64,000 nt of DNA from Yamagishiella unicocca (taxonomy: Eukaryota > Chlorophyta > Chlorophyceae > Chlamydomonadales > Volvocaceae), in assembly GCA_003116995.1 (NCBI GenBank), contig BDSL01000002.1, forward strand, positions 1-64,000, written 5' to 3'. Position 1 is the first letter of the stretch. Every line of letters begins with the position of its first letter. Made by a program: the position numbers and the translations under genes. Below the pieces are notes generated by a model. That model was not told the DNA's origin and did not search any database. It saw nothing but the letters and a program-made list of their open reading frames with translations. Positions 32,344 to 45,534 of this stretch are shown here, piece by piece.

Positions 32344-35300
32344 TCACATCGCCACCGCATCACCCGAAGTAATGTACTTCTGCAGCGCGGGAGCAATCAC
32401 CATGTCCTCCAGCACGCTCCACACGGTCGTCACCAGGCTCGACGCCAGCTTCGCAGCACCCTGCAGCAAGGCGGCGTGGACAGTGCCGGCAATGATGAAA
32501 GGCCGAGGTACCGGTCGCAAAGAGCACCCTCTCGGCCTGGCATACTCGACAAAATGACTGACAAGCGCCCGGGGGAGCGCCCAGCGAATGAAACCCTGAG
32601 GATCACCGGCTGGTCCCTCTTTCCCAGCGCACGTTCGATTCACCCACCCACCCACCTGAGCAGCTGCCCGGCCGCGCGACCTCCTCTCGACTGGGTCCCT
32701 GAGCAGCGCGCTTAGCGCCGAGGTGAGTTCCTCCTCGTTGGAAACAATCCATACCGCCGGACCGACCCGCGGGTCGCACGTAAGTTGCGCGGCGGGGATC
32801 AGGTACTGACCGGCATACCTGGAAAGGACAGGATGGCATGGGGCGCGCAGGGTGAGAGAAGGACCTGGGCAGATGCACGGCTGAAAATGACATAGGGGCG
32901 AAACGCAGTCAAGAGCACAGCACCGCCTCGAACAGCCATGCAAAAGGTTGAAAAGCCCACAATCGAGGTCAAGCCCGGTGTCACAAACACGCCCTGACGA
33001 AAAGCCAACACTTACCGTGCCGACGGCGCGACATTGGACTGTACGTCGCCCGCGGTTGCTCCGCCGACCGATCCCAGCGGCGAGCTGGTGTTGCCTCCGA
33101 CAACTTCCCGCAAGCGACTCTGGCCCTGGCCCAGTCCGGTGCCGTATCCCTCCATGTGTGATGGTCCCTGTGAACCACCCACCGCTGCAGCAGACCTCGA
33201 CCCTGCCCGGCGACGAGCGCTGTAGCCGCCCGGCGCTGCCTCACGATGGGGACCACCTGTGGAGCCTGCTGGCAACGGCACGTATGGCACTTGCCGCTGG
33301 TGCATCATGGAAGACCCCAGTGCGACCGTAGCGGCGCCGTTCGTGGCCGCGGCCGCCGCCGCCGCCTTAAAGCCAAGGCCAGCAGCCGTGCTGGGATCTG
33401 CGCTCGCTGGGTTGGTCCCGGCAGGTGCATGGCAGGAGCCGCTGCGCTGGGTGCCGTCCACAGCCGGCGGCTTGGGCTCGTGGAGTCGGTCGCTACGGCC
33501 GCCGTCAGCGCCGCGAGGAGCGCTCGAGCCTAGCCCTCCCTGGGGCCCGAACGAGCCGGCCGCCCTGTAGCCGGTCCCCTGGCTGCCAGAGGGATGCCGA
33601 CTGACGGGCCCTGCCACCGCCGCGCGCGGTGACGGCGGCGCCAGCTGGCGGGCAGCATGGTGGTCGGGCGCCGTGTTTGGGCGATAACACTGGGCCGACG
33701 CGAATGGAACCGGCGCGGCGGCGTCAAAGTCGCCGGCGAAGCCGGCGCCTACCCCGTAGCTGCCACCACCGACCGTGGAGCCCACAGCCGTGGGCGTCAC
33801 GACGCGGGTCTCGATGGGCAGGTCGGCCGCCTCGTACTCCGCCGCCTCAAACTGGCTCTCCAGCGTCGCCAGCGCCTCTTGCGCGTCCACCGGCGGCATG
33901 CTGGGCAGCGGGATGGACGGTTGCCCGCAGGGCCCGCTCACCGACGCCATAGCAAGGCGCAGCATGGCATCCGCCGCGGCCGAGTCGTTCAGCGACAGCT
34001 CCGGCGCCGACTTGCGGAACAGCCGGCGTCGCACCGCCTCGGCACTGTCGGGACTGCCCTCCGCCTCCTGCGCAGCGCCCGCCACGGCGCGCACACCGCC
34101 GCTGGGGCCGTGGCGTTGGCTCAGGGCCTCGTCATCGTTTGGCATGGGGAGCGGCCAGCCAGCGGATGAGAAGCAGTGTTCGGGGGCCCGTGAGCCGCCC
34201 TGCGCGACCTCCGGCGCGGCAGTCACTGGCTGAGTCGACGGCGCCCGAAGGCGCGGCAGCGGTGGCAGCGGAGGCAGCTGCGGCAGAGCCGGCATGGCCA
34301 GGGGGTTGCTGTTGAGGCCCGCAACGCGACGGGGAGATGCGGGCACAGCGGAGGCGGGGGAGCGAGACGGACCCTGCCGACCAGGTGACCGTGACGGCAT
34401 GCCGGCAGCGGAGCCGCGACCCGGGCTGGTAGAGGCGTATCCGGCTGTCGGGACTGGAGCCGGTGCTTCCGATTCGCCGGATGGTGACGTCTTATTTGCT
34501 TGCTGCATCAGCGCGGCGTGCAGCAGAGGGCTGGACGACCTCCGAGGCGTCCCCCGACGGCTGCCTGCCCTCGGCGAGCTGACCGCCTCCGGCGACGGCG
34601 CGCCCGCCGCGGCTGCTGGCGCGCGAGGCGACGCCGGCGGTGGAGGCAACCTGGGCTGCGGTGACACGGGCGACGCCACCTGCACCGTCATGCGAGATAA
34701 CACGTCGACCAGCGGGTCCGGCGAGTTGCGCACCGGGATGCTGCTTCCCGCGAACAGCTGCCGCGACACATGGCCCCAGCTGGGAGAGGCCGGGGGTCCC
34801 ACCGACGAGGCCCCAGTGGTGGGCGCGGGGAACAACACCCTCGCCGACCGCGGCGTCGCCAGCGTGTTCACGGTGCCGTTCATGTAGCGGGCCTGCTGGA
34901 GCTGCCAGGACTCCGCGTCGTCCCGGCCGGTCGAAGACAGTGGATCTGCGCCAGCTGCAGCGCTGGTGGCAGCGCCGTCCAGCGCAAAGACGTGCATCTG
35001 CGAGTGTGCCCCCGGCGACTTGCCGACGCGCGGCGACCTGGGCGCCTCCGCCGGTGACGCGCACGCGTCCAGGAAGCAGCAGGTCGAGGAAGACAGCGAC
35101 ACAGGCAGCGGCGGCGGGCCCTCGCGTGACGAGAAGAGCGCCCGCGCGGAGCGCGGGGTAGCGGCGGCGCTGGCGGTGCGGGACTCCACGCGCACCCTGT
35201 CCCACATGTGCTGCTGGTGGCTGCGCTGCGCATGCAGGTCGAGCGCCTGTACCCTGGAGCCCTCCTGGGGGCTCAACAGCTGGGGAACGTCCCGGCGGCC

Positions 35301-44300: not shown

Positions 44301-45534
44301 ATACGAGCTCAGCGTGTTCCTGAGCATCCTGCGGCTCGTGTTCCGGACGTGCCATTCCAGCATGTCCTCACCGGGCATGTGCGCGTTCAATAGCGCCAGG
44401 CACACACCGGACGTCCGAGCCATTTCTGCCAACTCTCGTTGGAACGGGGTCTCCTGCGCGGGGAGTATGTATATTGTACACCCAAGAACATCATGCTTGC
44501 GGTGCATGTGCTTTCGCGCGTCCATGCATATTAGCAAGGACAGGCCCTACAGGGCTGCGGCTCTTTGGTCCACTAATCGTGGTGACGACCCCGGCCTTCC
44601 GCACACCTCCCTCTGCCTAATTTTATTGCTTACCAGGAATACGCCGACCTGCGGTTGCCATTTCCGCAAGAAAGCAGTGATAGTTATGGGATTTGCCAAA
44701 GGCACCAGCTGCACCAGCACCTGCGCCAACAACGGGTTGCACCAACACAGCGTGGGCCCATGTCAGGTTAGGGGTTTCGGAGCCATAAGAGCACTAGCTG
44801 CCGTGCGGAAGTCATCTACACAATGGTGCACACATGCCGGGCGGAAGTCGTCGACAGAGTGTCGCAAATATACTTTCCCTTTGTAAGCCAGTCCACTCAC
44901 CCGCTGGGGAAGAGACTCTCCAAGCAACTTGTAGACTCCTAGGCATGAAGTTGTTACCAAGACAGTGACCTTCTCGTTGTACTCCTGTCAGTGTAACGCG
45001 GGTCTAGTGGGCTTGGTGGTGCAGGTAGGAAAAGTAGCAAGCGGCCCGGCATATCAATAACTATAATTGCGTTTGTGAAGGATGGCTAGGCGCAAACAGA
45101 GCGGCAGTTTGTAAGTTTCGCAGGGCGGGACTTCCGAGGCAACCGGCATCGCCCAACACAGTTACGCCGCCCGTGAGCCCCCAACGCACCTGCAAACATC
45201 TGTAGACTACCGGCAAGACAGTCGACGTCTCTCCTAAAGGCACAGAGAGACGTTTTCAGGATGACCTTTTGGCGCGTTTTGAACCGAAGCGTGATGTCTT
45301 ACCAAGTCCATTTACATGGAACCACAACACCGGTCCTTTACGTCGCTCCACACTGCTCCAACCAAGGCGTTGAAGCTGCGCATCATAGGTGGCAGATATT
45401 GCACTTAGCACCAGCGCGGGAAAATAGCTTCCTCGCCTTGCGCTTACCGCTGTGCCCAGAGTCTCCTCCCGTTTCAATAGCTGCAGCGTTAAAAACGCCA
45501 ACGATGCAGGGAGCTTGGCGGCTCCCTGCAGCAT
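32344..45534 (-). CDS. KDTA: Kdo transferase (GT30) with giant in-frame insertion
   Basis: KDTA/WaaA transfers Kdo from CMP-Kdo to a lipid A-type acceptor; the plant homologue is mitochondrial. Twelve exons keep frame over 3,797 residues: 45534-45303, 45233-45190, 44984-44901, 44720-44634, 44453-44274, 44064-43920, 43754-43506, 43279-42757, 42613-42058, 41894-33016, 32818-32656, 32595-32344. Family blocks in bacterial order: FHVNGLGE (catalytic-type Glu79), KVTVLVTTSCLGVYKLLGE, TAFLRKWQPQVGVFL/ETPF, GVCLALLNAHM, RQLWIAANTQPGED, LAGGSLIP, LLMGPHGAQF. After exon 10 comes VWIVSNEEELTSALSALL followed by RDPVERRSRGRAAAQ, the family's C-terminal helix region. The usual GGHNPLE segment reads SLDGASSPA, so part of the sugar-nucleotide site is degenerate. 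An in-frame stop two codons upstream fixes the start at 45534. A two-gene reading is possible but would split the conserved fold. Confidence 0.78.
33016..42613 (-). other. Two-exon coding cassette inserted in KDTA
   Basis: Exons 9 (42613-42058) and 10 (41894-33016) encode 3,145 residues with no counterpart in Kdo transferases. The protein is rich in Ser, Pro, Ala and Gly, with very many SP/TP dipeptides (for example LASPRSPVSPVRVARTLSP) and short recurring motifs such as SSPFSG, TSPFRH and SSPFRG. Predicted disorder is likely. Exon 8 ends in phase 2 and exon 11 begins in phase 2, so the pair is a symmetric cassette. Exon 10 is a single 8,879-nt open exon, exceptional for this intron-dense window. 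Confidence 0.8.
40965..41396 (-). repeat. 54-bp tandem repeat encoding an 18-residue motif in KDTA insertion
   Basis: Eight head-to-tail 54-bp copies start at 40965 and recur every 54 bp to 41396. They encode variants of AQKVLVAAQPTAEASSPA. The last copy (highest coordinates) is the most diverged, with VVIAAQPSAEASSSA. Degenerate copies continue towards 40850. Confidence 0.92.

What the first reader, a model, noticed from the sequence alone, without database searches (positions are those of the whole stretch)
32344..45534. Kdo transferase gene split by a ~3,145-residue in-frame insertion
Conserved KDTA blocks occur in the right order on both sides of a 9.4-kb coding block. Upstream are FHVNGLGE through LLMGPHGAQF; downstream is the C-terminal EEL...DP..R helix. 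All twelve exon joins agree in phase and the total length is divisible by three. GT30 enzymes are normally about 420-450 residues, so a ~3,800-residue version with a disordered insertion inside the C-terminal Rossmann half is extraordinary. The blocks and phases are seen; the single-gene interpretation is inference.
Basis: partly seen in the sequence, partly recalled or inferred. Interest (0 to 1): 0.9.

Follow-up and report, generated by a model that had tools for sequence, protein, structure and literature searches.

The report
Kdo-transferase relative with giant insertion
In a volvocine-type green alga a gene descended from a bacterial-type sugar transferase carries about 3,200 extra, mostly disordered residues inside its second half; several relatives share the layout, and residues that should hold the sugar donor are gone, so it is probably no longer a Kdo transferase.

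Summary
The minus strand at 45534-32344 carries a 13-exon gene with 12 in-phase GT-AG joins and 3,728 codons. GT30-like (KdtA) sequence flanks about 3,227 foreign residues, 82 of them already inside the exon with GPHGAQF. Gene models of Gonium, Pleodorina and Volvox africanus share the layout (inserts 2,415, 3,300 and 2,823 residues); a V. reticuliferus model joins insert to C-part but starts inside the insert. One gene is strongly supported, without RNA. The insert sits in a loop of the C-terminal Rossmann half. 'Kdo transferase' is doubtful as a function: the N and E of the GGxNxxE motif are kept in 80 of 80 bacterial sequences examined but in 0 of 4 volvocine proteins, and E. coli KdsA, KdsB, LpxC and LpxB find nothing in this genome, while two control queries do. 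Best reading: a GT30-derived pseudoenzyme anchoring a giant disordered loop rich in proline-directed phosphosite and RxLF-like motifs. The scaffold role is inference.

The parts
43005..45534 (-). GT30-like N-terminal half plus first part of the C-terminal Rossmann half: exons 1-8 (45534-45448, 45375-45303, 45233-45190, 44984-44901, 44720-44634, 44453-44274, 44064-43920, 43754-43506) and the first part of exon 9 (43279-43005); aa 1-408
   Evidence: exons, phases; PF04413 82 bits; aligned; over aa 54-408 269/340, 274/355 and 243/330 identical to Pleodorina, V. africanus, Gonium
42757..43004 (-). start of the insertion, inside exon 9 (aa 409-490), ending at donor GTGGGC
   Evidence: follows the last KdtA-alignable residues; a WQQLV(S/T)E stretch shortly before the join is shared with Pleodorina and Gonium (sequences), not seen in V. 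africanus
42058..42613 (-). exon 10 of the insertion (phase 2 in, phase 0 out), begins R|PMSAPP
   Evidence: RPMSA/RPMTA at this join in Pleodorina, V. africanus and Gonium models
33016..41894 (-). exon 11 of the insertion, 8,879 nt, one open frame of 2,959 codons; A/S/P/G-rich, disorder-like composition, with conserved islands
   Evidence: no Pfam family at E up to 1
40957..41398 (-). 54-nt (18-aa) tandem repeat, 8.2 copies, inside exon 11
32656..32818 (-). exon 12: first part of the C-terminal tail of the GT30-like fold (YAGQYLIPAAQ...DPVERRSRGRAAAQ)
32344..32460 (-). exon 13: last GT30-like part and TGA stop
32095..32099 (-). TGTAA, candidate poly(A) signal about 245 nt after the stop; none between 42756 and 32819, but only about 0.8 expected there by chance
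   Evidence: UGUAA as chlorophyte signal: PMC1868727, passages

Best explanation
One gene encodes a 3,728-residue protein. Shown by sequence and gene models: a GT30 (KdtA/WaaA)-derived sequence is interrupted, within its C-terminal Rossmann half, by about 3,227 residues, and this layout is shared by volvocine relatives. Inferred: the two halves still pack into one GT-B domain, so the insert is a giant loop pinned at both ends. The domain no longer uses CMP-Kdo (pseudo-glycosyltransferase), and its job is to anchor or display the loop. The loop acts as a phosphorylation-controlled binding platform through conserved proline-directed sites (S/T-P-x-K/R) and RxLF-type docking motifs.
For: One gene: 12 GT-AG joins in phase; the insert starts inside a GT30 exon; the V. 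africanus P0009, Pleodorina and Gonium models hold GT30 sequence, insert and C-part in one protein (the Pleodorina and Gonium models lack the first ~68 residues), and the V. reticuliferus model joins insert to C-part. Ancestry: PF04413; 2XCI weak hit, E 0.0032. Not an ordinary Kdo transferase: N and E of GGxNxxE lost in 4 of 4 volvocine rows, kept in Tetradesmus and in 80 of 80 bacterial rows. KdsA, KdsB, LpxC and LpxB queries find nothing at E up to 1, while E. coli RF1 gives 9 matches, 5 of them at 3e-8 or better, and a bacterial KdtA finds one exon of this very gene at 1.1e-5. Yet the domain is strongly conserved (269/340, 274/355, 243/330 identical), which suggests constraint. Loop: low order-promoting content. 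[ST]P.[KR] 19 against 5.0 in shuffles, [KR].LF 5 against 0.3, with excess in all five insert sequences tested. 5 of 19 [ST]P.[KR] sites kept in all three compared relatives.
Against: No RNA, no protein data and no structure (prediction was not accepted). Two relatives' models do not span the gene: P0007 (V. reticuliferus) starts inside the insert, and P0006 (V. africanus, labelled partial) stops exactly at the exon 11/12 join. The GE glutamate is kept in the window and V. africanus, and the second Glu in both (Asp in Pleodorina and Gonium), which leaves room for some catalysis. Pathway absence rests on bacterial queries only, in an assembly of unknown completeness. Motif excess was tested against shuffles only, not against other disordered algal proteins; the wider docking pattern [KR].L.?[FLIVMP] is not in excess in Gonium (231 of 500 shuffles reach it), and [KR].LF is absent in the more distant P0011. 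Kinase and cyclin readings of the motifs are recalled.
Confidence: 0.6

Rival explanations
1. It is still an active glycosyltransferase (Kdo or another sugar acid); the giant loop is a tolerated or regulatory surface insertion.
For: GE Glu and second Glu kept in the window; the N part is highly conserved; PGE[ED] kept in the four volvocine rows.
Against: N and E of GGxNxxE lost in all four volvocine rows; no KdsA/KdsB found; Kdo and lipid A pathways reported apparently absent in C. reinhardtii (PMC5741210, passages). Asp replaces the second Glu in Pleodorina and Gonium.
Confidence: 0.15
2. Cassette exons: exons 10-11 are spliced in or out, giving a compact 583-residue protein and a giant one.
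For: Exons 10-11 together are phase 2-2 and skipping stays in frame.
Against: Phase symmetry occurs by chance in about one case in three; about 82 insert residues stay in exon 9 anyway; the three relatives' models that span the site include the insert. Compatible with the best explanation rather than exclusive of it.
Confidence: 0.15
3. Two genes: a GT30 gene whose long intron holds a separate same-strand gene for the disordered protein.
For: ATG at 42609 just inside exon 10; the exon 11 frame would end at a TAA overlapping the donor at 33015; the V. reticuliferus model P0007 starts inside the insert and the partial V. africanus model P0006 stops at the exon 11/12 join.
Against: Both outer joins are in phase; R|PM(S/T)A recurs at the first join in Pleodorina, V. 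africanus and Gonium, and AR|Y.GQ.L.PA at the second in Pleodorina, V. africanus and V. reticuliferus (Gonium reads QRQHAGQYLIPA); the insert begins before the exon 9/10 join; P0007 itself runs from insert into C-part; no TGTAA between 42756 and 32819 (weak, 0.8 expected).
Confidence: 0.04
4. Assembly or annotation artefact.
For: Relatives are gene predictions; one distant model (P0011) has the halves in the other order.
Against: Same order and content in separately named genomes of Gonium, Pleodorina and V. africanus; one uninterrupted long coding block here.
Confidence: 0.02

Closest known systems
WaaA/KdtA, bacterial Kdo transferase (GT30; PDB 2XCI/2XCU, 4BFC)
   Same: N-half by Pfam PF04413; block order; C-terminal tail; GE glutamate
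   Different: About 3,227 residues inserted where 80 of 80 bacterial rows have none; N and E of GGxNxxE lost; below NCBIfam cut-offs (best 121.6 of 617 bits)
Volvocine long gene models (Gonium P0010, Pleodorina P0008, Volvox africanus P0006/P0009, V. reticuliferus P0007); [quoted passage not shown]
   Same: Same insertion site and shared conserved islands; P0008, P0009 and P0010 show GT30 sequence, insert and C-part together
   Different: Insert length 2,415-3,300; P0008 and P0010 lack the first residues, P0007 the GT30 N-half, P0006 the C-part. The window has an 18-aa repeat array in a poorly conserved stretch. The names look like automatic labels (inference)
Tetradesmus obliquus P0001 (572 aa) and Sanguina aurantia P0002 (411 aa)
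   Same: GT30-like N-half (43% and 39% identical over the matched part)
   Different: Models lack the C-terminal part; Tetradesmus keeps the N and E of GGHNxxE, Sanguina does not
Arabidopsis KDTA (At5g03770)
   Same: Eukaryotic putative Kdo transferase; RG-II structure unaffected in its null mutant (PMC4404806, passages)
   Different: Sequence not compared here; normal length is recalled, not from a call

Membership tests
GT30 / KdtA Kdo transferase | PF04413 N-terminal domain above gathering score | tested here: met
   82 bits against 23.9
GT30 / KdtA Kdo transferase | NCBIfam KdtA equivalog cut-off | tested here: not met
   best 121.6 bits against 617; five of five models hit but lie below their cut-offs, tested with exons 1-8 of the 12-exon model
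GT30 / KdtA Kdo transferase | GE glutamate (catalytic base; role recalled) | tested here: met
   GLGE in window, HLGE in V. africanus; not covered by the Pleodorina and Gonium models; D in P0011. E in 79 of 80 bacterial rows, the other not covered
GT30 / KdtA Kdo transferase | second conserved Glu (xESxxWPNL; role recalled) | tested here: met
   E in window and V. africanus, D in Pleodorina, Gonium and P0011, G in Sanguina; E in 80 of 80 bacterial rows, though one search pattern covered this site
GT30 / KdtA Kdo transferase | N and E of the GGxNxxE motif (donor-site role recalled) | tested here: not met
   absent in 4 of 4 volvocine rows; present in 80 of 80 bacterial rows and Tetradesmus
GT30 / KdtA Kdo transferase | uninterrupted C-terminal Rossmann half, about 420-450 aa | tested here: not met
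   3,728 aa; insert between two conserved stretches of the C-terminal half
GT30 / KdtA Kdo transferase | host makes CMP-Kdo | tested here: inconclusive
   E. coli KdsA and KdsB: no hit; two controls hit; no plant or algal query was used
GT30 / KdtA Kdo transferase | Kdo transfer activity | not testable with these tools
   needs enzyme assay
Pseudo-glycosyltransferase | fold kept under constraint with substrate-binding residues lost | tested here: inconclusive
   conservation and motif loss shown; fold not modelled; no codon-level test made
CDK/cyclin-regulated disordered protein | conserved S/T-P-x-K/R sites with RxL docking | tested here: inconclusive
   enriched over shuffles and partly conserved; wider RxL pattern not enriched in Gonium; no kinase data, no control set of other disordered proteins

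The most novel reading that the evidence does not exclude
A metabolic enzyme that lost its pathway was turned, in the ancestry of volvocine algae, into the clamp of a disordered loop of some 2,400-3,300 residues that serves as a multisite cyclin/CDK (or other proline-directed kinase) platform. This would be a lineage-specific regulator carried inside a Rossmann fold.
Probability: 0.15. Interest if true: 0.85.

Novelty: new variant of a known kind. Interest (0 to 1): 0.62.

Why it matters
An insert more than six times the size of the host core (about 3,227 against about 500 residues) sits inside a Rossmann half and is shared by several genera. It looks like a case of an enzyme outliving its pathway, suggests that the 'Kdo transferase' names on volvocine gene models are wrong as to function, and gives a tractable protein for asking what a giant closed disordered loop does in algae used to study multicellularity.

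Tried and rejected
Family searches of the own genome (PF04413, TIGR00466, TIGR01362) were discarded: PF04413 missed even the window's own gene, so their silence means nothing. Protein queries were used instead, with two working controls.

A paralogue without the insert was looked for with the window's own KdtA sequence: of 11 matches, 10 are this gene and one is a 296-bp copied piece of intron 11 and exon 12 on another contig, 90% identical. No further match came up; the tool scores only its best candidates.

My first exon model had wrong borders for exons 2-3, corrected; the extra intron in exon 1 came from comparison with V. africanus.

Absence of a poly(A) signal as proof of one transcript was rejected as weak (0 seen, 0.82 expected). 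No known domain was found in the insert: exon 11 of the window has no Pfam match at E up to 1 (the exon 9 part of the insert lay's query, exon 10 was not scanned), and of five relatives scanned whole, four show PF04413 (P0008 and P0009, P0010 and P0011) and P0007 nothing, with one SNURF match in P0009 at E 0.68, far below cut-off. Rfam: no hit in the window.

[quoted passage not shown] None that I saw describes this gene. A survey of algal glycosyltransferases has no 'GT30', 'KDTA' or 'Kdo' in its main text (PMC3797821, term search). Passages of two bacterial Kdo-transferase papers were seen (PMC12856342, PMC12887879) and not used. The WaaA structure paper is not held. Searches served mechanism, poly(A), insertion and plant background.

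The three homologue searches score about 8,000 candidates each and have length limits, so species not listed (C. reinhardtii, V. carteri) are not shown to lack the gene. The tree left out P0004 and V. reticuliferus.
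Full report
WHAT IS THERE. On the minus strand a 13-exon gene runs from ATG at 45534 to TGA ending at 32344. All 12 introns are GT-AG, 69-226 nt long, and all phases agree; the coding sequence is 11,187 nt, 3,728 aa. Two corrections: an extra 72-nt intron splits the N-terminal exon (45447-45376), and the foreign sequence starts inside exon 9 (about 43004), not at the exon 9/10 join. The insertion is thus about 3,227 aa (aa 409-3635), of which 3,145 are in exons 10 and 11. 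Exon 11 alone is 8,879 nt with no stop in frame, while the other five frames hold 30 to 65 stops each.

ONE GENE OR TWO. I had no RNA. The evidence is comparative. Protein models of volvocine algae were found by the insert and by the GT30-like part: V. africanus (P0006, 3,268 aa, partial; P0009, 3,329 aa), Pleodorina starrii (P0008, 3,731 aa), Gonium pectorale (P0010, 2,842 aa) and V. reticuliferus (P0007, 2,741 aa). P0008, P0009 and P0010 contain GT30 sequence, insert and C-part in one chain, though P0008 and P0010 lack the first ~68 residues. P0007 runs from inside the insert to the C-part; P0006 stops exactly at the exon 11/12 join. Identity to the window protein is 269/340 (Pleodorina), 274/355 (V. 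africanus) and 243/330 (Gonium) in aa 54-408; 1176/2830, 911/2528 and 759/2201 in the insert; 73/93, 74/93 and 71/93 in the C part, with V. reticuliferus 882/2365 and 75/93 for insert and C part. The sequence at the first join recurs in three relatives, that at the second in three and in changed form in Gonium. These are gene predictions, so this is strong but not final evidence, and two of the five models do not span the gene. TGTAA, the chlorophyte poly(A) word (PMC1868727, passages), occurs about 245 nt after the stop and nowhere between 42756 and 32819, but only 0.8 would be expected there. Because exons 10-11 are a phase 2-2 cassette, a 583-aa product without them would also be in frame.

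WHERE THE INSERT SITS. In an alignment with two bacterial KdtA proteins, the insert falls after the stretch that follows the GP...NF motif and before the conserved EEL...DP tail. In Aquifex WaaA (2XCI) this is between ...DLKEFLEKEGA and GFEVKN...; that these are a helix and a strand is recalled and inferred, not computed. Of 80 bacterial KdtA loci examined, 80 have no inserted residue there (these are the best 80 of 450 confirmed relatives, close to one alphaproteobacterial-type query). Structure prediction was not accepted, so closure of the fold around the loop is inference.

IS IT STILL A KDO TRANSFERASE. Ancestry is clear: PF04413 at E 5.1e-23. The NCBIfam KdtA models hit, but far below their cut-offs. 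The glutamate of GE and the second conserved glutamate are kept in the window protein and V. africanus; the second is Asp in Pleodorina and Gonium, whose models do not cover the first. The N and E of GGxNxxE, present in 80 of 80 bacterial rows (no search pattern covered this motif) and in Tetradesmus, are absent in window, Pleodorina, V. africanus and Gonium, and also in Sanguina, P0004 and P0011. A tree of nine sequences puts Tetradesmus and the bacteria outside the rest with 97/96 support, consistent with one loss after that split, though Sanguina's branch is long. That this motif holds the donor is recalled knowledge of GT30 and GT-B enzymes.

THE PATHWAY. E. coli KdsA, KdsB, LpxC and LpxB proteins find nothing at E up to 1 in the own genome. 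Controls: E. coli RF1 gives 9 matches on three contigs, five of them at 3e-8 or better, and a bacterial KdtA finds one exon of this very gene at E 1.1e-5, with two chance-level matches elsewhere, so the search can reach the divergence at which KdtA itself stands. The genome's completeness is not given. A published comparison reports Kdo and lipid A pathways apparently absent in Chlamydomonas reinhardtii (CMP-Kdo score 0.00, Kdo2-lipid A score 0.17) and Kdo present in scaly prasinophytes (PMC5741210, passages); a review places such keto-sugar acids in scaly and thecate algae (PMC10762512, passages). In Arabidopsis, too, KDTA's null mutant leaves RG-II unchanged (PMC4404806, passages).

THE INSERT. 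Composition A 16.5, S 13.7, P 11.5, G 9.5 percent in exons 10-11. The fraction of order-promoting residues is 0.19 against 0.35 in the N part. No Pfam domain was found in exon 11. Nine islands within the insert, of 15 counted over the whole protein, are shared by window, Pleodorina, V. africanus and Gonium. [ST]P.[KR] occurs 19 times against 5.0 in shuffles, and [KR].LF 5 times against 0.3; both are in excess in all five insert sequences tested, while in the window insert R..[ST] and [ST]..[ED] are not, and the wider [KR].L.?[FLIVMP] is not in Gonium. The three compared relatives together keep 5 of 19 [ST]P.[KR] sites and 2 of 5 [KR].LF sites, against 88 of 601 single S/T positions and 53 of 506 S/T not followed by P. 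A more distant model, P0011, has [ST]P.[KR] sites but no [KR].LF. Reading these as proline-directed kinase sites and cyclin-type docking is recalled motif knowledge, with shuffles as the only background.

VERDICT. A real, conserved, single gene on present evidence (I would put that alone at about 0.93); GT30 by descent, probably not by function; most likely an anchored giant disordered loop. The last step is inference and the weakest.

Noticed in passing
L012:4410-4696 (G000:C46) against window 33010-32716: A 296-bp stretch of intron 11 and the start of exon 12 is copied, 90% identical, onto another contig: a moved DNA fragment, not a full paralogue.
   Followed up: partly
P0011, 1,875 aa (eukprot model): The C-terminal GT30 part (313-406) comes before the N-terminal part (464-851), with insert-like sequence before and after: two tandem copies merged in one model, a misassembly, or a permuted gene. 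Its GE reads RD.
   Followed up: partly
40957-41398: 18-aa tandem repeat (8.2 copies, 54 nt) inside the insert, in a stretch poorly conserved in relatives.
   Followed up: no
7738-9477 (-): Open frame with a weak match to the Peptidase_M1 N-terminal domain, E 5.6e-4, below the Pfam cut-off.
   Followed up: no
56122-57180 (-): Open frame with a weak mucin-like match, below cut-off, probably compositional.
   Followed up: no
22108-22156 and L012:5658-5704: Short 49-bp repeat shared between the window and contig C46.
   Followed up: no
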